From an uncultured Gemmata sp. (GTDB lineage: Bacteria; Planctomycetota; Planctomycetia; Gemmatales; Gemmataceae), in the NCBI GenBank assembly GCA_937924775.1, contig CALDUT010000001.1, positions 1-64,000 on the forward strand: 64,000 bases of DNA. The letters run 5' to 3'. Below the pieces are notes generated by a model. That model did not search any database. It had not been told where the DNA came from and saw only the letters and a program-made list of their open reading frames with translations. This document shows positions 43,623 through 53,272 of this stretch, in pieces (within the stretch, counting starts at the first letter, position 1; each line of letters opens with the position of its first letter). Position numbers and translations under genes: made by a program.

Positions 43623-43757
43623 CTTTTTCCGCCACGCCAGCCCTGGTGTCGGCGATTGAAAAAGCGATAGCGGAGCGTGATTTTCCCGTGCGTTGGGTGA
43701 TTGGTACAACTACAATACCTGCACGATTCTGGCTCGCCTTTTCCCCGGAGAATTGAC

Positions 43758-46700
43758 ATGCCCGGCGGTCGTTGGATTTTCAGTCGGTTTGGCACCTTCT
43801 TACCGGTCGTTCTCCTGACTGGGTGGGTGAGTATCAGCGTCGTGGGCCTCCGCGGTTTGAGTCCTGTCGGTTCACTGATGGCCGCGGAACCTGCTGCTGA
43901 AGCTCAACTCCCACCGTTTGAATTTCAGAAAAATGATCATCTTTGTATTATTGGCAACACACTGGCTGAGCGGTTACAGCACGATGGCTGGTTCGAAACT
44001 TTCCTCTATGCCCGCTTGCCCGATCATAATCTGCGGATTCGCAACCTGGGCTACTCCGGCGATGAAATCACTGTGCGGTTGCGTTCTGCCGACTTCGGGA
44101 CGCCTGATCAGTGGCTGTCTGCCAAAGCCCCGATTCCCAAACCCGATGAAATTCTCGATAAAAGCGTTGTGAACCCCAATCGATTCGAGAAAGTCGGGAC
44201 CCAGGCCGACGTGATCTTCGCGTTCTTCGGCTACAACGAATCATGGGCGGGTGAAGCCGGTTTGCCGAAGTTCAAAAGCGACCTCGCCGCTTGGATCAAG
44301 CACACTCTAGCCCAGAAATACAACGGGAAATCGCCGCCGCGGCTGGTCGTGTTCTCGCCGATTGCCTTCGAGGATCACAAATCCCCCCATCTGCCCACCG
44401 GGGCCGACGCGGAGCGGATCAATCGGAACCTTGAACTGTATACCCAAGCCATGCGGGAGGTTGCGGCGGCTCACCGCGTCCACTTTATCGACATCTTCAC
44501 CCCCACCCGGGCTGCTTACGCCAAAGCCACGAAACCCTGGACTATCAACGGCGTCCACCTGACCGAAGCCGGGAATCGCCAACTGGCCGAGATCATCGAC
44601 GCCCACTTGTTCCCTCCGAAAGGCCCTTACAGCCCGCCTGATGAAAACCTCCTGGCTCGGATTCGCCCCGCGGTGCAAGACAAGGCCTTCCACTGGTTCC
44701 AACGCTACCGGGTGACCGATGGTTACTCCATTTACGGGGGCCGGGCATGGCTACGCTTCCCGGCCAAAGTCGGCCAAAGCAATTACGAAGTGATGCAACG
44801 GGAACTCGAAGTTCTCGACATCATGACGCTCAATCGCGATAAAGTGATCTGGGAAGTGGCCCAAGGTCGCAACGCGAAACCGGACGATTCCAACCTCCCC
44901 CCCTTCATTCCGGTCAAGACCAACAAACCTGGCGACGGACCCAACGGTACCCATCTGTTCCTCTCAGGCGAAGAAGCCATCAAGAAAATGACTCTCGGCA
45001 AAGGGTTGAAGGTCAATCTGTTTGCCGATGAGTCGATGTTTTCCAACGAATTGGTTAACCCCGTGCAGATGGCGTGGGATACCAAAGGCCGCTTGTGGGT
45101 CGCGGTCTGGCCCAGTTACCCGCACTGGAAGCCCACGGAACCCTACAACGACAAAATCCTGATTCTGGAAGATACCGACGGTGACGGCCAAGCGGACAAA
45201 TGCATCACCTTTGCTGATGGTTTGCAGAATCCCACCGGATTCGAATTCTATAACGGCGGTGTGATTGTCGCCCAAGCGCCTGATCTGATCTTCTTGAAGG
45301 ATACCACCGGGGATGACCGGGCCGACGTCCGCCAACGCATTCTGCATGGCCTCGACACCGCGGATACCCACCACACCGCCAATAGCTTTGTGTTCGATCC
45401 CGGCGGGGCGTTGTATTTCCAAGAAGGCACCTTCCACCATTCGCAGATTGAAGACCCCTACGGACCCCCGAAGCGGGTCGCCAACGGGGCCGTTTTCCGC
45501 TACGAACCGCGAACCCACAAGGTGGACGTTTATATCAGTTCACCATTTGCCAACCCCCACGGTCACGTGTTCGATCGTTGGGGGCAAGACATTGTGATCG
45601 ATGGCACCGGAGCGCAGCCCTACCATGCCCCGCTCTTCAGTGGCTACTTACCCTATCCGCACAAACACCCCAAACCACCGCAAGTCTATCAACAGCGAAC
45701 GCGGCCCAGCGGGGGCATGGAGTTGCTTTCCAGCCAGCATTTCCCCCCAGACTGGCAGGGGCATCTGCTGGTCACCAACTGCATCGGTTTCCAAGGCATT
45801 CTGCGGTACAAGATCACCGATGCCGGCTCCAGTTTCGCTGGCCAAGAACAAGAACCGGTTATCAGCAGCAGTGATCCGAACTTCCGGCCTGTCGATGCCA
45901 AAATTGGACCAGATGGGGCCATCTACTTCCTCGATTGGCACAACCCGATCATCGGGCACATGCAGCACAATCTCCGCGACCCCAGCCGCGACCGCAGCCA
46001 CGGCCGGATTTATCGCATCACATACGATGGCCGACCATTGTCACAACCCCCGAAAATCGCTGGGGAATCCATAGACAATCTGGTGAAACTGTTGGCGCAC
46101 CCGGAAGATCGGGTCCGTTACCGGGCCAAGATCGAATTGGGGGCTCGTGCGAGTGACGATGTTCTGGCCACAGCCAAGAAATGGCTGGCCTCCCTTCCAG
46201 TGCCCGATGGGAAGAATGATGAAGCCTATGAACACGCCCGGCTCGAAGTGCTGTGGCTGCATCAATACCATAACGTCGTTGATTCCGATCTGCTGCACGC
46301 GGTTCTGCAATCCCCGGATTTCCGGGCCCGCGCAGCCGCGGTACGCGTGCTGACCTATTGGCGCAAGCGCGTTCCCGGGGCGCTGGAGCTGATGAAGGCC
46401 GCGGTCACCGATCCTCACCCCCGTGTCCGCCTGATGGCCGTCTGTGGCCTGAGCTTCTTCCCCGCTTCGGAAGCATTACCGGTGCTGCTCGAAACCCTCA
46501 GCCATCCGACCGATCCCTACATCGACTTCGCCTTCAAAGAAACACTCCGCACCATCGAAGGCCAACTGGGCGTCAGCAGCAAAGGCGGAGCTGCCGCGAT
46601 GCTGGTCAAACTGCTGGCCAGCGGCAAAGTCCCGCCCGAGCGACAGCGGAGCTATATCGAGACTATTTGCCGACAGGGGAATGCCCAGGAACTGAGAGCC

Positions 46701-48269
46701 GTTTGGGATTCGGTGGTGACAATGGACGCCGTGCTGTTGCCGCTGCGGCGACTGGCCGCGGAAGGCCTGGCCGATGCCGCGATCACCCGCAAGGTCAAAC
46801 CGACGGGCACGCTCGACGTGACACCGCTTCTGGCGTCGCCAGAAGCCGAGCTTCGGGAAGCCGCGGTCCGGCTCGCCGGGGCATGGCAGTTGGCCACAGC
46901 GGCCCCCACGCTCCGCGACATCGCCAGTCGCGATACTGAACCTATGGCCGTGCGGGTGGCCGCGGTGGAAGCCCTCGGGGTGTTCACCGATCCTGATTCG
47001 CAAACAACACTTACCAAACTCGCCGGCCCGAAGGTGCCAACACCGGTTCGCTTCAGCGCGATTGCGGCCATCGCCAAACGTGATCCGAAACAAGCCGCGC
47101 CGCTAGCTGCCGCGGCCCTCGCCGAGGCCCAGCCCAACGACACCATCGGTATCATCATTGATGCCTTCTTAACCCGCAAAGGCGGACCCGAGGAACTCAC
47201 CGCTGCACTCGCCCAAACGCCCCTCGGGCCCGATCCAGCAAAACTGGCGCTGCGGTATATGTACACCGCCGGTCGCTCCGACGCCGGACTCTCGGAAGTG
47301 CTGACCAAAGCTGCCGGGTTGAATGTTTCGCCCAAACCACCTACCGCCGAGGAAATCAAGGAATTGGTGGACCTGGTGATGAAAAAAGGCGATCCGGCCC
47401 GCGGAGAAGCCATCTTCCGCCGAGCCGATCTGGGCTGCTTCAAATGCCATGCCATCAGCAAAGCTGGCGGTAACGTCGGCCCAGAACTATCCGCCTTGGG
47501 CGGTTCGTCCCCGGTGGAATATGTGGTGTCGTCGATCTTGGATCCCAACGCCGCCATCAAAGAACTCTACACCACCCGGGTGATCACCACTATCCACGAA
47601 CAAGTCTTCACCGGGATTGTCGTTTCCCGAGACGATCAACGCGTGATTCTCCGCGATGCGACGGGTAAACTGATCACCATTCCGGTCAAAGACATCGACA
47701 GCGAACGCGAAGGCAAATCCCTAATGCCCGAGGGCCTGACAAAATTCCTCACCCAACAAGAACTGATCGACCTGAGTCGCTTCCTCGCAGAACTCGGCAA
47801 ACCCGGCGAGTATGCGGTTCAGAATCAGCCTACGATCCAACGCTGGCGCGTGTTACAACCCACCGAGCCGTCCTTGGCGAAAGCGCTGCCTGATAACGAA
47901 ACCTTCCGCCGTCTGGTGCTGGGAGCCAAGCCCGAAGCGTGGATGAAAGCCTATGGCACGGTGGCCGGCTTTTTGCCATTGGCCGAACTCCGCCATCCGG
48001 AGAAACCCGGCATCGTCTACGCCCAAGGGGAAGTGGAACTCGCCAGCGACGGAGTGCTGCACTTCGACATTCAGGGGCCGGTACGCCGGGTCTGGATCGA
48101 CGATCGGCCCATGGACGACAAGTGGAACAACCAATTGCGGCTGTCGGCCGGTCGCCACACCATCACCTTCGCCCTCGATACCGCAGCCCATCCTGATGGC
48201 AAGCTGCGGGTGGAAGTCCACGCTGGCACTGGGGCCGCCTTGCGTTACCAGATCATCCACGGGGAATAA
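43758..48269 (+). CDS. SGNH hydrolase / PVC-type heme-binding / HEAT / cytochrome c protein
   Basis: About 1503 aa from ATG 43758 with GGAG 7 bp upstream. Domains in order: signal peptide (about 1-38); SGNH/GDSL-like hydrolase domain (about 45-310; IRNLGYSGDEI, VIFAFFGYNESWAGEAGL, WTINGVHLTEAGNR); a PVC-type membrane-bound-dehydrogenase propeller (about 430-780; GKGLKVNLFADES, ILEDTDGDGQADKCITFADG); HEAT repeats (about 790-1190); a class I cytochrome c domain with C1227-FK-C1230-H1231 (LGCFKCHAISKAGGNVGPEL); a C-terminal beta domain ending at the stop. It is exported and heme-bearing, probably with carbohydrate-related activity. No other gene is close. Confidence 0.9.
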   Translation: MPGGRWIFSRFGTFLPVVLLTGWVSISVVGLRGLSPVGSLMAAEPAAEAQLPPFEFQKNDHLCIIGNTLAERLQHDGWFETFLYARLPDHNLRIRNLGYSGDEITVRLRSADFGTPDQWLSAKAPIPKPDEILDKSVVNPNRFEKVGTQADVIFAFFGYNESWAGEAGLPKFKSDLAAWIKHTLAQKYNGKSPPRLVVFSPIAFEDHKSPHLPTGADAERINRNLELYTQAMREVAAAHRVHFIDIFTPTRAAYAKATKPWTINGVHLTEAGNRQLAEIIDAHLFPPKGPYSPPDENLLARIRPAVQDKAFHWFQRYRVTDGYSIYGGRAWLRFPAKVGQSNYEVMQRELEVLDIMTLNRDKVIWEVAQGRNAKPDDSNLPPFIPVKTNKPGDGPNGTHLFLSGEEAIKKMTLGKGLKVNLFADESMFSNELVNPVQMAWDTKGRLWVAVWPSYPHWKPTEPYNDKILILEDTDGDGQADKCITFADGLQNPTGFEFYNGGVIVAQAPDLIFLKDTTGDDRADVRQRILHGLDTADTHHTANSFVFDPGGALYFQEGTFHHSQIEDPYGPPKRVANGAVFRYEPRTHKVDVYISSPFANPHGHVFDRWGQDIVIDGTGAQPYHAPLFSGYLPYPHKHPKPPQVYQQRTRPSGGMELLSSQHFPPDWQGHLLVTNCIGFQGILRYKITDAGSSFAGQEQEPVISSSDPNFRPVDAKIGPDGAIYFLDWHNPIIGHMQHNLRDPSRDRSHGRIYRITYDGRPLSQPPKIAGESIDNLVKLLAHPEDRVRYRAKIELGARASDDVLATAKKWLASLPVPDGKNDEAYEHARLEVLWLHQYHNVVDSDLLHAVLQSPDFRARAAAVRVLTYWRKRVPGALELMKAAVTDPHPRVRLMAVCGLSFFPASEALPVLLETLSHPTDPYIDFAFKETLRTIEGQLGVSSKGGAAAMLVKLLASGKVPPERQRSYIETICRQGNAQELRAVWDSVVTMDAVLLPLRRLAAEGLADAAITRKVKPTGTLDVTPLLASPEAELREAAVRLAGAWQLATAAPTLRDIASRDTEPMAVRVAAVEALGVFTDPDSQTTLTKLAGPKVPTPVRFSAIAAIAKRDPKQAAPLAAAALAEAQPNDTIGIIIDAFLTRKGGPEELTAALAQTPLGPDPAKLALRYMYTAGRSDAGLSEVLTKAAGLNVSPKPPTAEEIKELVDLVMKKGDPARGEAIFRRADLGCFKCHAISKAGGNVGPELSALGGSSPVEYVVSSILDPNAAIKELYTTRVITTIHEQVFTGIVVSRDDQRVILRDATGKLITIPVKDIDSEREGKSLMPEGLTKFLTQQELIDLSRFLAELGKPGEYAVQNQPTIQRWRVLQPTEPSLAKALPDNETFRRLVLGAKPEAWMKAYGTVAGFLPLAELRHPEKPGIVYAQGEVELASDGVLHFDIQGPVRRVWIDDRPMDDKWNNQLRLSAGRHTITFALDTAAHPDGKLRVEVHAGTGAALRYQIIHGE

Positions 48270-48455: not shown

Positions 48456-49151
48456 GTGCTGTGGCCCCCGCTGAGATCCCGAAACCGCATCCCGGAATGG
48501 ATGGACGACCCAACCCTCGATCCCCAGGAGCATCGGCGGGCCTTGGCCGCTTTGGCCCGGTTGAATCGGCTTAGTAACAGTGCCGGGGTGCTGTGGCCGC
48601 AAATTGCCCAACGCGCACGAACCTCCCAACGCCCCTTGCGAGTGTTGGATGTGGCCACCGGCCGCGGCGATGTTCCCCGCCAACTGCTGGCGCGAGCCAC
48701 CCGGGCCGGTTTATCCCTGGAAATGGCCGCCTGCGATCTGAGCCCCACGGCTATCGCCGAAGCCACTCGGGAACCAAGCCCGATACGCTTTTTTGTCCAC
48801 GACGCTTTGCGGGAGCCGCTGCCCGGAGGCTTCGATGTAGTCATGTGTTCACTTTTTGTTCACCACCTCGACGACACCGACGCGATCCGGCTTCTGCAGA
48901 ACATGGCCGCCGCGGGGCGGTGGGTTCTCGTGAACGATTTAGTCCGCTCGCGGTTCAGTTACTGCGCAGTGTGGCTGGCGTGCCGGTTGCTGACCCGCTC
49001 GCCGGTTGTTCGCTTCGATGGTCCGGCTTCGGTCCGTTCGGCCTTCACTCCGGAAGAACTGCGACGCTTGGCCGAGCAGGCTGGCTTATCTCAGATCCGA
49101 ATCCAGACGCGGTTTCCGTGCCGAATGCTATTAAGCGGGAGCAAGGAATGA
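48456..49151 (+). CDS. SAM-dependent methyltransferase of the type III PKS operon
   Basis: About 231 aa from GTG 48456. An ATG at the MDDPTLDPQEHRRALAAL segment would be shorter, but IPEW before it looks conserved with that segment. Motif I is VLDVATGRGDVPRQLLA; then MAACDLSPTAIAEA, FDVVMCSLFVHHLDDTDA and WVLVNDLVRSRFSYCAVWLA. The TGA overlaps the next ATG (49148-49151), so it is translated together with the flavoprotein. It probably O- or C-methylates the polyketide product; the target is not known. Confidence 0.88.
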   Translation: MLWPPLRSRNRIPEWMDDPTLDPQEHRRALAALARLNRLSNSAGVLWPQIAQRARTSQRPLRVLDVATGRGDVPRQLLARATRAGLSLEMAACDLSPTAIAEATREPSPIRFFVHDALREPLPGGFDVVMCSLFVHHLDDTDAIRLLQNMAAAGRWVLVNDLVRSRFSYCAVWLACRLLTRSPVVRFDGPASVRSAFTPEELRRLAEQAGLSQIRIQTRFPCRMLLSGSKE

Positions 49152-50218
49152 ACTTCGATGCAGCCATCATCGGAGCGGGGCCCGCCGGCGCAGTGACGGC
49201 TTACGAACTGGCCCGGCGGCGGCAACGGGTGTTGTTGGTCGATAAGGCGAAGTTTCCTCGGCCCAAAGTCTGTGGGTGCTGTCTCAATCGCGGAGCTGTC
49301 CAAACTTTGAACAAGCTCGGCTTAGGGCCCGTTCTCGCTCAGGCCGTACCGCTCTCCGCGGTGTGCCTTGCGGCGGCCGGACATACGGCCACGATCCCCC
49401 TTCCGGGGGGCGTCGCTGTGTCGCGGGAATGCCTCGACTCGGCTCTGGTCCATGCAGCGATTCGCGCTGGAGCTCTCTTTCACGATGGCGAAGCCCGAAA
49501 AGTCGCGGAATGCCAAGCCATCGCTCAGGTTGTGATCGTCGCGTCGGGCTTGCTTGGGAACGAAGCACCCGCGGAAGCCGATTCGCGCATCGGAGCCGGT
49601 GTGGTGGTACCCGCCGAAGGGGTTCCGGCGTTTTTCCGTCGCGGTCTGGTCTACATGGCGGCGGCCGCTGGCGGGTATGTCGGCCTGGTGCGGTTGGAAG
49701 ATGACCGGCTCGACGTGGCCGCGGCCTTCGATGTGCGGTTCGTCCGTCGGTGCGGGGGGCTGGGACCGGCCGCGGAGGCCATCCTGGCTGAAACCCGCTG
49801 GCCAGCGATTCCGCAACTGGCGATGCTCCCTTGGAAAGGCACGCCGGCACTGACCCGCCAGGCCACGCCACGGGCCGGCGAACGTTGGTTTGCCGTAGGC
49901 GATGCAGCCGGTTATGTAGAACCCTTCACGGGGGAAGGTATGGCGTGGGCGATTCGCTCGGCGGTAGCCCTCGCCCCCCTAGCGGTGCGGGCCGCGGAGG
50001 ATTGGTCGGCTTCACTGGCCCGCGAATGGGAATTGACGCACCGTCGCCTGATCCAATCGCGGCAACAGGTGTGCCGGATGGTGGCCCGGGTCTTGCGGTC
50101 GCCGCGACTGACGGCCTGGGCAGTCCGAGTGCTGGCGGTTTGTCCGGCGTTATCGTGGCCGGTGGTGGCGTCGTTGAATCGCTTTCCTCCCCTCCAACTC
50201 CGCGGTGCCCGGGTATGA
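49148..50218 (+). CDS. FAD-dependent oxidoreductase of the type III PKS operon
   Basis: A 356-aa flavoprotein starting at the ATGA overlap. The dinucleotide-binding motif is DAAIIGAGPAGAVTAYELAR, followed by LLVDKAKFPRPKVCGCCLNR, the Cys-rich signature shared by geranylgeranyl-reductase-like and halogenase-like FAD enzymes. FAD motif 2 is WFAVGDAAGYVEPFTGEGMA. It probably oxidises (hydroxylates) or reduces the polyketide. Its own TGA overlaps the start of the PKS gene at 50215-50218. Confidence 0.9.
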   Translation: MNFDAAIIGAGPAGAVTAYELARRRQRVLLVDKAKFPRPKVCGCCLNRGAVQTLNKLGLGPVLAQAVPLSAVCLAAAGHTATIPLPGGVAVSRECLDSALVHAAIRAGALFHDGEARKVAECQAIAQVVIVASGLLGNEAPAEADSRIGAGVVVPAEGVPAFFRRGLVYMAAAAGGYVGLVRLEDDRLDVAAAFDVRFVRRCGGLGPAAEAILAETRWPAIPQLAMLPWKGTPALTRQATPRAGERWFAVGDAAGYVEPFTGEGMAWAIRSAVALAPLAVRAAEDWSASLAREWELTHRRLIQSRQQVCRMVARVLRSPRLTAWAVRVLAVCPALSWPVVASLNRFPPLQLRGARV

Positions 50219-51321
50219 GCTTGGTGATTCACGGTTGGGGCACAGCGCATCCACCGGATGCGGTCACGGCGGCGGAAGGGTTAGCCTTGGCCCGCGTCCT
50301 GGCAGGGCCGGACGTCCGCACGTCGGCTTGGCTAGGCCCGATTTACGCCAATAGCGGAGTGCAGCAGCGCTTTCAGGTGATCGGCGGCGACGCCAAACGG
50401 GATGTGTTGGCCGGAACCACGTTCAGCGGCTCTCCGTTTCTGCCGACGCTTGATAACGATGGCGTCGGTCCGACCACCGGGCAGCGGATGCGGTTGTATG
50501 AACAACATGCGCCTCACCTCGCGGTGCGTGCGGTCGCGGAGGCTTTGCGCGAAGCCCGTTTCTCGGCGGATTCCGTCACTCATCTGGTGACAGTGTCGTG
50601 TACCGGGTTCAGCGCACCGGGCGTCGATTATGCGATCATCAGCCAATTGGGGCTGCAAGCCACAGTCGCCCGGACCCATGTGGGCTTTATGGGCTGCCAT
50701 GGGGCGTTGAATGGCTTGCGTGTGGCAAATGCTTTTGCGTCCGCCGATCCGCAGGCCCGGGTGATTGTCTGCGCAGTGGAATTGTGCAGTCTCCATTATT
50801 ATTACGGCAACGCGGCGGATAAGCTGATCGCCAATGCGATTTTTGCCGATGGGGCTGCCGCGGTGGTGGGTCAGGCCGAGCCATCCCCGGCTTCACTTAG
50901 GTGGCGACTTGTCGCTTCGGGATCGTGTGTCATACCCGACTCGCACGGTGATATGAGTTGGACGATCGGCGACCACGGCTTCGAAATGACCCTGTCGCGA
51001 CGCGTACCGGCGCTGATCGCCAAGCATTTGCGGCCATGGCTGGACTCGTGGCTGAGCCACTCTGGCTTGTCGTTGGGTGAGGTACGCAGTTGGTGCCTGC
51101 ACCCCGGGGGGCCGAAAATTCTCTCCGCGGTGGAGGAAACCCTCGGTTTATCGCCAGAGCAAGTGGCGACGTCGCGCGAAGTGTTTGCCGCGTATGGCAA
51201 TATGTCGAGCCCCACGGTGCTGTTCATCCTCCAGCAGTTGCAGGCTTTGGGAGCTCCGCGTCCATGTGTGGCGCTGGGGTTTGGCCCCGGATTGGTGGTG
51301 GAGGCGGCCCTGTTTCTGTGA
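50215..51321 (+). CDS. Type III polyketide synthase (chalcone/stilbene synthase family)
   Basis: A 368-aa ketosynthase with the complete catalytic triad by position: C161 in HVGFMGCHGALNGL, H296 in CLHPGGPKILSAVEE and N329 in YGNMSSPTVLFIL. Supporting motifs are VSCTGFSAPGVDYAII and the C-terminal GFGPGLVVEAALF. Such enzymes condense an acyl-CoA starter with malonyl-CoA units without an acyl carrier protein and cyclise the chain to resorcinols, pyrones or phloroglucinols. It is last in a three-gene operon with ATGA overlaps. Neither starter nor product can be read from sequence. Confidence 0.93.
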   Translation: MSLVIHGWGTAHPPDAVTAAEGLALARVLAGPDVRTSAWLGPIYANSGVQQRFQVIGGDAKRDVLAGTTFSGSPFLPTLDNDGVGPTTGQRMRLYEQHAPHLAVRAVAEALREARFSADSVTHLVTVSCTGFSAPGVDYAIISQLGLQATVARTHVGFMGCHGALNGLRVANAFASADPQARVIVCAVELCSLHYYYGNAADKLIANAIFADGAAAVVGQAEPSPASLRWRLVASGSCVIPDSHGDMSWTIGDHGFEMTLSRRVPALIAKHLRPWLDSWLSHSGLSLGEVRSWCLHPGGPKILSAVEETLGLSPEQVATSREVFAAYGNMSSPTVLFILQQLQALGAPRPCVALGFGPGLVVEAALFL

Positions 51322-51410: not shown

Positions 51411-52256
51411 TCACTTATCGCGATCAATAGGGGTGTCGTCGGAGTTGCCCCATTCGCTCCAACTGCGATAGTAATTGCGTATGTTGGAGGCACCAGCCAG
51501 TTCCAAACCGAACGCGACGACCGCGGCGCGACCCCCGCTTTGGCAGTAGGTGACCAGAGGTTTATTCAAGTCGATGCGGCGTTCTTTCAGCAACAACTGA
51601 ATTTTCTGCTGTGGCAGGAATTTGTCGGTTTTCGGATCAATCAATTCCGACCATTCGAGATGGATCGCCCCCGGGATACGGCCACCGTTTTTAGCCAACG
51701 CTCGCTCGCCGCGGAATTCGCCGGCCGAACGGGCATCGATACACACGCAGCCGTTTTTGTGTTCTTTAAGGACAAACTGTTTATCCGCCAGCCGAGTGAA
51801 GTCCGGCTTCCAATCGTGGGTTTCGGCAGTGGCGGTGGCGGCTTCTTTTTGCTCGGGGAGTTTGGCCTGCGTGTAGGCTTTCCATCCGCCGTTGAGCAGG
51901 CGCACGTCGGGCACGCCGGCGAACTTCAATAGCCACCACGCCCGGGCCGCCTCGCGGACATCGTCGGAATACATCACCACGGGGATTTGGGGGGAAACCC
52001 CGACCTTGGCCAGTTCTCCCTTCCAGAACGCACTGTCCGCTTTTCCTGCGACAACCGCCTTCGACCACGGCTCGACATTCGCATGGATGGCCCCCGGGAT
52101 GTGCCCGGCATCGTATTGGGCCCATGAGCGTACATCGAGGATGCGATAGTTTTTGAGCTGCGCATCATCCACTTCCACAAGCAGTTGGTGTGGGGGCACA
52201 GGGGTGGGCGGTTCGGCCGCACACAGGTAGACAAGGACAAGTGCGGATGTCATCAT
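51411..52256 (-). CDS. Exported tandem-rhodanese sulfurtransferase
   Basis: A 281-aa protein with a short signal (about residues 1-15, ending LCAAEP) and two rhodanese domains. The N-terminal domain (ILDVRSWAQYDAGHIPGAIH) has VVMYSDDVREA where the active Cys should be, so it is inactive. The C-terminal domain (CIDARSAGEFRG, GRIPGAIHLEWSEL) carries the active loop TYCQSGGRAA with the catalytic Cys. The layout matches thiosulfate/mercaptopyruvate sulfurtransferases, but a periplasmic location is unusual for detoxification. It converges with the PKS operon. Confidence 0.88.
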   Translation of the reverse strand: MMTSALVLVYLCAAEPPTPVPPHQLLVEVDDAQLKNYRILDVRSWAQYDAGHIPGAIHANVEPWSKAVVAGKADSAFWKGELAKVGVSPQIPVVMYSDDVREAARAWWLLKFAGVPDVRLLNGGWKAYTQAKLPEQKEAATATAETHDWKPDFTRLADKQFVLKEHKNGCVCIDARSAGEFRGERALAKNGGRIPGAIHLEWSELIDPKTDKFLPQQKIQLLLKERRIDLNKPLVTYCQSGGRAAVVAFGLELAGASNIRNYYRSWSEWGNSDDTPIDRDK

Positions 52257-52318
52257 GGGCCAGATCCTTCTTGCGAGGAAACGTCGTTTTCTTTCACCTT
52301 AGGGGAGTTGCAGGAATC

Positions 52319-53272
52319 ATGGCTATGGATATTTCGCGACGGACGCTGCTGGCCGGAGCCGCTACGGGATTCGCCATGAGCCCACTGACTGCCACGGAGA
52401 AACCCAAAACCAGTTTTCGCTTTTGCCTCAATACCAGCACAGTTCGGGACAAAGACGGCAAACCCCGGCCTCTCCCTGAACTCATCGCGATCGCCGCGAA
52501 AGCCGGCTACGACGCCATCGAGCCGTGGATCATGGACATCGATGCCTATCTCAAAAGTGGAGGAACTCTTCAGGAATTACGCCATCGCCTCGACGATGCC
52601 GGGCTGAAAGTCCCGGACGTAATTGGCTTTGCCGAATGGATTGTCGAAGACCCCCAGCGGCGAAAAAAAGGCTTCGAACAAGCCCAGCGGGATATGGAAT
52701 GGGCCGCGGCGATCGGTTCCCCGCACATCGCCGCGCCGCCGGTCGGAGCCACCGGGGGTACCAGCCCCCGCGACGATCCCAAGTTCAGCCAACCGGTGGT
52801 CGATCTGATCGCGGCCGCCGACCGTTACCGGGCCTTGATTGAGCTGGGGGAGAAAATGGGGGTTGTGCCCATTGTGGAAGTGTGGGGGTTCTCGAAGACC
52901 TTGCGCCGGTTGGGGGAGGCGTTACTCGTGGCCATGGAGTGCGGCCACCGCCGGGGTTGTGTGTTGCCCGATGTGTATCATTTGTACAAAGGCGGTTCCG
53001 ATTTCACGGGATTGCCCCTACTATCTGCCAGCGCAATTGGCATTTTCCACGTCAACGATTATCCGCAGATCGACCGGGAGAAAATCACCGATGCCGACCG
53101 CGTCTTCCCTGGTGATGGTGTGGCTCCCTTGCGCGAATTGTTCGGCACATTACAGCGGATGAACTACACCGGTTTTGTGTCGCTCGAATTATTCAATCGG
53201 GAGTATTGGAAACAAAATCCCCAGGATGTGGCTCAAACCGGCTTGAGGAAGTTGCAAGCTCTGGTGGCGTAA
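52319..53272 (+). CDS. Exported sugar-phosphate isomerase/epimerase-like TIM barrel
   Basis: About 317 aa from ATG 52319 with CAGGAA just upstream; the frame is open earlier but overlaps the rhodanese start region. A twin-arginine signal (MDISRRTLLAGAATGFAMS) leads to an AP-endonuclease-2/xylose-isomerase-like barrel: FRFCLNTSTVRDKDGKPRPL, AGYDAIEPWIMDID, GVVPIVEVWGFSKTLRRL and IGIFHVNDYPQIDREKITDA, with acidic and His residues that can bind metal. Substrate unknown, probably a sugar. It is divergent from the rhodanese gene and converges on the regulator gene. Confidence 0.85.
   Translation: MAMDISRRTLLAGAATGFAMSPLTATEKPKTSFRFCLNTSTVRDKDGKPRPLPELIAIAAKAGYDAIEPWIMDIDAYLKSGGTLQELRHRLDDAGLKVPDVIGFAEWIVEDPQRRKKGFEQAQRDMEWAAAIGSPHIAAPPVGATGGTSPRDDPKFSQPVVDLIAAADRYRALIELGEKMGVVPIVEVWGFSKTLRRLGEALLVAMECGHRRGCVLPDVYHLYKGGSDFTGLPLLSASAIGIFHVNDYPQIDREKITDADRVFPGDGVAPLRELFGTLQRMNYTGFVSLELFNREYWKQNPQDVAQTGLRKLQALVA

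What the first reader, a model, noticed from the sequence alone, without database searches (positions are those of the whole stretch)
48456..51321. Translationally coupled methyltransferase - flavoprotein - type III PKS operon
Three genes joined by two ATGA overlaps form a compact biosynthetic unit. The PKS keeps Cys161, His296 and Asn329. The same trio of functions is known from the Streptomyces srs operon for methylated alkylresorcinols and quinones, which gives a working model of tailored phenolic lipid or pyrone. Order and flavoprotein type differ from srs, so the product may be new.
Basis: partly seen in the sequence, partly recalled or inferred. Interest (0 to 1): 0.6.

Follow-up and report, generated by a model that had tools for sequence, protein, structure and literature searches.

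The report
Alkylresorcinol lipid operon of planctomycetes
Three tightly packed genes in a planctomycete bacterium very probably make a methylated phenolic lipid (an alkylresorcinol); the same gene set was already described and partly tested in related planctomycetes and in cyanobacteria, so this is a real but ordinary copy.

Summary
In detail: window 48456-51321 holds a methyltransferase, an FAD oxidoreductase and a type III polyketide synthase (PKS) joined by two ATGA overlaps, with Cys161, His296 and Asn329 intact. The model of a tailored phenolic lipid is reasonable, but srs is the wrong parallel. The order is that of cyanobacterial hidABC (hierridins) and of a published planctomycete cluster (Milke et al. 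2024, PMC10896814). There, 58 of 96 planctomycetal type III PKS genes sit last in this same operon; expressed PKSs made C15/C17 alkylresorcinols; co-expressing the Gimesia maris methyltransferase and oxidoreductase added one methyl, probably on carbon. Here the trio recurs in 65 of 80 fetched relatives, 59 of the 67 with at least 2.2 kb upstream held. The PKS is not FabH by profile, fold or tree. So 'order differs from srs, product may be new' loses its force. The flavoprotein's role, the final product and its use stay open, as in that paper. New member of a known kind, low interest.

The parts
48456..49151 (+). class I SAM-dependent methyltransferase (HidA-like position; NCBIfam PRK06202-like, 222 bits, just under the 243 cut-off)
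   Evidence: 83% identical to L031; alignment A3 of 31 rows, in which L031 starts with ATG at the position of the GTG
49148..50218 (+). FAD-dependent oxidoreductase of the geranylgeranyl-reductase/aromatic-hydroxylase superfamily (HidB-like position)
   Evidence: AlphaFold mean pLDDT 91.6; Foldseek best 50 are mostly flavin halogenases and aromatic hydroxylases at 14-20% identity; GxGxxG in 33 of 33 aligned proteins
50215..51321 (+). type III polyketide synthase (HidC-like position), catalytic Cys161-His296-Asn329
   Evidence: (pLDDT 93.8)
49148..49151 (+). ATGA stop/start overlap, methyltransferase to oxidoreductase
   Evidence: -4 in 9 of 65 relatives, approximate starts
50215..50218 (+). 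ATGA stop/start overlap, oxidoreductase to PKS
   Evidence: -4 in 26 of 54 relatives measured

Best explanation
A three-gene alkylresorcinol operon of the hidABC / planctomycetal type. Inferred for this genome from tested relatives: the PKS takes a C16-C18 fatty acyl starter, extends it with three malonyl-CoA, and closes the tetraketide by C2-C7 aldol condensation to a 5-alkylresorcinol. The methyltransferase then methylates it (C-methylation probable in Gimesia maris; O-methylation in cyanobacterial hierridins). The FAD enzyme most likely hydroxylates the ring, as hierridin B requires, giving a tailored amphiphilic phenolic lipid. Shown here: the genes, their order, overlaps, active-site residues, predicted fold and conservation. 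Shown by others in relatives: the alkylresorcinol core, and one added methyl when methyltransferase and oxidoreductase were co-expressed. Not shown in what I read: what the planctomycetal flavoprotein does, or the final native product.
For: Domains and active site. Predicted fold: query TM 0.83-0.89 over the 50 listed solved structures, which are type III PKSs. Trio conserved in 65 of 80 fetched relatives, 59 of the 67 with at least 2.2 kb upstream. Of 18 same-genus relatives, all with a PKS match, loci were fetched for 17, and all 17 also match the methyltransferase and FAD genes. With FabH as outgroup the window PKS lies with Gimesia, Stieleria and Cyanobium/Synechococcus proteins in one group of 17 rows (86/92) apart from Deinococcus, alphaproteobacterial and Streptomyces type III PKSs. 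Published: 58 of 96 planctomycetal type III PKS genes in this operon; PKSs from G. maris, R. baltica and S. maiorica gave penta- and/or heptadecylresorcinols in C. glutamicum; same order as hidABC.
Against: No product is known from this organism. Two of six expressed planctomycetal PKSs gave no product, though neither came from the three-gene operon or a variant. The group that joins the window PKS with the cyanobacterial ones has only moderate support (86/92). In a larger tree one Streptomyces row fell on a long branch inside the cyanobacteria. The tested HidC LEGE 06113 and the six expressed planctomycetal PKSs were not themselves in my trees. Methyltransferase identity does not separate the Gimesia type (49-50%) from the cyanobacterial type (47-50%). 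15 of 80 relatives did not show the trio in this order.
Confidence: 0.87

Rival explanations
1. The PKS makes alkyl-alpha-pyrones rather than resorcinols, and the methyltransferase O-methylates the pyrone.
For: Among the closest solved structures are mycobacterial type III PKSs, one of them a pyrone maker (recalled). Milke et al. say some planctomycetal candidates are annotated as alpha-pyrone synthesis PKS.
Against: The four tested planctomycetal PKSs from this operon or its variants gave alkylresorcinols. The window PKS lies in the same operon type and groups with Gimesia and Stieleria PKSs.
Confidence: 0.07
2. The flavoprotein takes the methylated resorcinol on to an alkylquinone, so the final product is a polyketide quinone, as for the Streptomyces srs enzymes. 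(A sub-case of the best explanation: the core is the same.)
For: Flavoprotein fold nearest to halogenases and aromatic hydroxylases; a Streptomyces and a Myxococcus precedent are cited in Milke et al..
Against: In C. glutamicum the planctomycetal enzymes did not give quinones. Hierridin B, from the operon of the same order, is described as hydroxylated and O-methylated.
Confidence: 0.2
3. The PKS is really a FabH/thiolase-type condensing enzyme of lipid metabolism.
For: Weak FabH-family score, 46 bits; weak blastp similarity to the genome's FabH proteins (22% identity).
Against: Chalcone-synthase models score 83 bits; two FabH genes exist elsewhere in the genome at 374 and 325 bits; FabH separates from the PKS rows at 100/100; Cys-His-Asn in type III PKS context.
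Confidence: 0.02

Closest known systems
Planctomycetal methyltransferase - FAD oxidoreductase - type III PKS cluster (Milke et al. 2024, PMC10896814)
   Same: Gene functions and gene order, PKS last; Pfam PF00195 and PF02797; same phylum judging by the nearest relatives
   Different: Another genome (Gemmata-like). I did not see whether its species is among the 131 genomes studied. A search of the main text for 'overlap' found nothing.
hidABC of Cyanobium sp. LEGE 06113 (hierridin B/C)
   Same: Order methyltransferase - oxidoreductase - PKS. Four other Cyanobium/Synechococcus loci fetched here (L098, L102, L107, L108): PKS 51-52%, methyltransferase 47-49%, FAD 39-44% identical to the window on best segments
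   Different: HidA is reported as an O-methyltransferase; the G. maris counterpart probably methylates carbon. LEGE 06113 itself was not fetched.
Streptomyces griseus srs operon
   Same: PKS plus methyltransferase plus flavin hydroxylase acting on alkylresorcinols (gene content recalled; alkylquinone product cited)
   Different: Gene order (recalled); srs proteins were not fetched. The two Streptomyces plasmid PKSs fetched here are 31 and 38% identical on best segments.

Membership tests
planctomycetal / hidABC-type alkylresorcinol operon | gene order methyltransferase - oxidoreductase - type III PKS on one strand | tested here: met
planctomycetal / hidABC-type alkylresorcinol operon | all three proteins about 48-55% identical to Cyanobium HidABC (range given by Milke et al. 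for planctomycetes) | tested here: inconclusive
   Against other Cyanobium/Synechococcus loci: PKS 51-52%, methyltransferase 47-49%, FAD 39-44% on best segments; FAD lies below the range, and LEGE 06113 was not held
planctomycetal / hidABC-type alkylresorcinol operon | product is 5-alkylresorcinol or a derivative | not testable with these tools
   needs expression and GC-MS
type III PKS | Chal_sti_synt N and C domains with Cys-His-Asn triad | tested here: met
type III PKS | predicted fold matches solved type III PKSs | tested here: met
FabH (KAS III) | score above the curated FabH cut-off (292 bits) | tested here: not met
   46 bits
flavin-dependent halogenase (considered for the FAD gene because of the Foldseek top hits and because hierridin C is chlorinated) | WxWxI motif (recalled; no halogenase was run as a positive control) | tested here: not met
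   absent in 33 of 33 aligned proteins; KVCG and PFTGEG are present in 33 of 33
Streptomyces srs operon | order PKS - methyltransferase - hydroxylase (recalled) | tested here: not met
   order in the window is methyltransferase - FAD - PKS

The most novel reading that the evidence does not exclude
The Gemmata branch makes a fully decorated phenolic lipid different from both hierridin and the C-methyl alkylresorcinol seen in C. glutamicum (for instance a hydroxylated, C-methylated resorcinol or its quinone). The same operon, present by record title in six bacterial phyla (mostly metagenome bins), would then supply a widespread but unrecognised membrane lipid or electron carrier.
Probability: 0.15. 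Interest if true: 0.4.

Novelty: new member of a known kind. Interest (0 to 1): 0.14.

Why it matters
It adds one well-preserved, probably functional copy to a published family whose final product and purpose were left open. The collection scan also shows the methyltransferase - FAD - PKS trio in bins titled Hydrogenedentota, Gemmatimonadota, Acidobacteriota and Elusimicrobiota, which bears on the published question of exchange between planctomycetes and picocyanobacteria. In one search of the held library, no listed paper held 'hierridin', 'hidABC' or 'hidC' together with 'Gemmatimonadota' or 'Hydrogenedentota'; older phylum names and the other phyla were not searched. A sponge metagenome paper (PMC12795557, passages) does compare unassigned type III PKS clusters with the hierridin cluster, among others, and names a Dadabacterium, an Acidobacteriota and an archaeal bin as holding the nearest clusters.

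Tried and rejected
FabH/thiolase reading: rejected.

First PKS tree (89 rows): rooting on FabH failed. On checking I found why in part: my script read only the + strand of the loci, so the row called L112_FabH was a wrong-strand reading frame of 239 aa, not FabH. That row is void and one search is used only for labels and groups within the PKS rows. One search repeats it with both FabH proteins found properly (341 and 359 aa open frames), with 15 of the 80 loci and all six plasmid PKSs: FabH then separates at 100/100. Its own output still warns that long branches meet (FabH with Streptomyces L121).

Second tree: window, 47 of the 80 loci and five plasmid PKSs, FabH and L120 left out; the Streptomyces row L121 fell on a long branch inside the cyanobacteria, against where it lies outside. 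Relied on: the window with L031 (100/100) inside a Gemmataceae-rich planctomycete group (100/100).

Flavoprotein as a halogenase (suggested and by chlorinated hierridin C): lowered, because the recalled halogenase motif is missing in 33 of 33. The low identities in the fold search leave hydroxylase versus reductase undecided.

Deciding C- versus O-methylation from methyltransferase identity: not possible (49-50% to Gimesia, 47-50% to cyanobacteria).

A glycine-rich SAM motif pattern matched only 24 of 31 methyltransferases; the pattern was my own loose one and was not used.

Papers: PMC10896814: outline with abstract, the whole Results section, the Discussion and passages; its Methods, Introduction and supplement were not read. 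PMC8086630, PMC12078418 and PMC12795557: passages only. All others, including those of the srs search: search listings only.

Full report
What is there. On the + strand, 48456-49151 (GTG start, 231 aa), 49148-50218 (356 aa) and 50215-51321 (368 aa) follow one another with two ATGA overlaps. Pfam names them as a SAM methyltransferase, an FAD-binding oxidoreductase and a chalcone/stilbene-synthase-type PKS. The PKS has Cys161, His296 and Asn329, invariant in all 43 aligned homologues (window plus 42 of the 80 fetched loci). A 186-base gap lies upstream, and a rhodanese-domain gene on the other strand lies downstream. The genome (4.79 Mb in 27 contigs, 97% complete) shows one match to this PKS at E 0.001.

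Is it more than chance? Yes. The nearest named relative, L031 (titled Gemmata sp. SKYG68), keeps the trio at 83, 79 and 85% identity with both overlaps. Among the 67 with at least 2.2 kb held upstream the count is 59; the other 8 are one FAD-PKS, one methyltransferase-PKS, five PKS with neither neighbour detected, and one PKS - methyltransferase - FAD. Of the 13 with less upstream sequence, 6 show the trio, 3 FAD-PKS and 4 the PKS alone. The -4 overlap before the PKS gene occurs in 26 of 54 measurable relatives, at the first junction in 9 of 65 with approximate starts. Of 59 genomes searched (own genome included), 48 have a match at E 0.001; by my count of the rows 38 have one below 1e-80 and 10 only weaker ones, about 1e-41 to 1e-4.

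Type III PKS, not FabH. Chalcone-synthase models score 83 bits each; the FabH model scores 46 against a cut-off of 292. Two FabH genes lie elsewhere in the genome at 374 and 325 bits. Of 106 distinct solved sequences matched, the 60 shown are named as type III PKS, chalcone, stilbene, pyrone or similar synthases, apart from two rows that bear only a rice locus name. The AlphaFold model (pLDDT 93.8) has query TM 0.83-0.89 with the 50 listed solved structures. With FabH as outgroup the tree separates FabH from 22 PKS rows at 100/100 and groups the window PKS with Gimesia, Stieleria, cyanobacterial and other mostly trio-type PKSs (17 rows, 86/92). An earlier tree with FabH was spoiled by a wrong-strand row of mine (see Tried and rejected).

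The flavoprotein. The best NCBIfam match is the geranylgeranyl reductase family at 91 bits, below its cut-off of 158.8; the second is QhpG, a flavin monooxygenase, at 69. Sequence search of solved structures puts flavin halogenases first, at E 2e-9 and weaker. Foldseek puts halogenases (FasV, Bmp2, PltA), PqsL and 3-hydroxybenzoate 6-hydroxylase nearest, at 14-20% identity over the 50 rows listed. GxGxxG, KVCG and PFTGEG are in 33 of 33 homologues; a WxWxI halogenase motif (recalled) is in none. Ring hydroxylation is the most likely role, because hierridin B, made by an operon of the same order, is hydroxylated. This is inference.

What is known. Milke et al. 2024 (PMC10896814) found 96 type III PKS genes in 131 planctomycete genomes, 58 of them last in a methyltransferase - FAD oxidoreductase - PKS operon. 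PKS genes from Gimesia maris, Rhodopirellula baltica and Stieleria maiorica gave penta- and/or heptadecylresorcinols in C. glutamicum. Co-expression of the G. maris methyltransferase and oxidoreductase added one methyl, probably on carbon. The authors relate the cluster to hidABC and consider horizontal transfer. A PKS deletion in S. maiorica had no growth or ampicillin phenotype. A 2021 survey of cyanobacteria (PMC8086630, passages) lists 47 hierridin-like clusters with two gene orders, hidA-hidB-hidC being the more conserved. The window trio is therefore a further copy of a described cluster.

Spread. By record title, the 80 loci are 58 Planctomycetota, 7 Hydrogenedentota, 6 Gemmatimonadota, 5 Cyanobacteriota, one each of Acidobacteriota, Elusimicrobiota and Actinomycetota, and one unlabelled. 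The Actinomycetota record is titled Bifidobacterium breve but its PKS nests inside the cyanobacteria, so it is probably a mis-binned contig. Most records are metagenome bins, so single labels are weak, but the seven Hydrogenedentota rows (98) and the six Gemmatimonadota rows with the Acidobacteriota row (96) group together in that quick tree, as do five and seven such rows in the second tree (100/99 each). A Paludisphaera borealis plasmid carries the trio with two 4-base overlaps. Plasmids of Deinococcus and Methylobacterium carry PKS - methyltransferase - FAD neighbours. Their PKSs are 42 and 40% and their methyltransferases 31 and 29% identical to the window's on best segments; their FAD genes give no match and E 0.009.

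Limits. No chemistry can be done here. The deep branching order among type III PKSs is unsettled. The supplement of the key paper, with its species list, was not available, so I cannot say whether this species was counted there.

Noticed in passing
L025, L026, L028, L034, L038 inside the PKS gene, after the residues matching window PKS about 218-228: Several Gemmata-like relatives carry an in-frame insert in one PKS loop that reads like translated palindromic repeat DNA (for example ...PTPFPKKEGG...SPSPLGGGVGEG...); L026 has two in a row, and the L038 stretch folds at -58 kcal/mol in 120 bases (no shuffles run). The window copy lacks it. It may be a small repeat element tolerated inside a coding gene.
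   Followed up: partly
L117, L119 (Deinococcus and Methylobacterium plasmids): A second arrangement, PKS - methyltransferase - FAD oxidoreductase, on large plasmids, with only distant similarity to the window genes.
   Followed up: partly
L116 (Paludisphaera borealis plasmid PALBO1): The planctomycetal trio on a plasmid, with two 4-base overlaps; a possible route of transfer, though the plasmid is typed as non-mobilizable.
   Followed up: no
L104: A contig titled Bifidobacterium breve carries a cyanobacterial-type PKS, probably a mis-binned metagenome contig.
   Followed up: no
window 43701-48269: Neighbouring large gene: GDSL-like lipase plus DUF7133 plus HEAT repeats; it lies just upstream of the operon in L031 too, but at other places in L034 and L077.
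   Followed up: no
window 52190-53272: The gene two places downstream is found within the fetched flank of 8 of the 80 loci, all among L031-L045, so the neighbourhood is conserved only locally.
   Followed up: no
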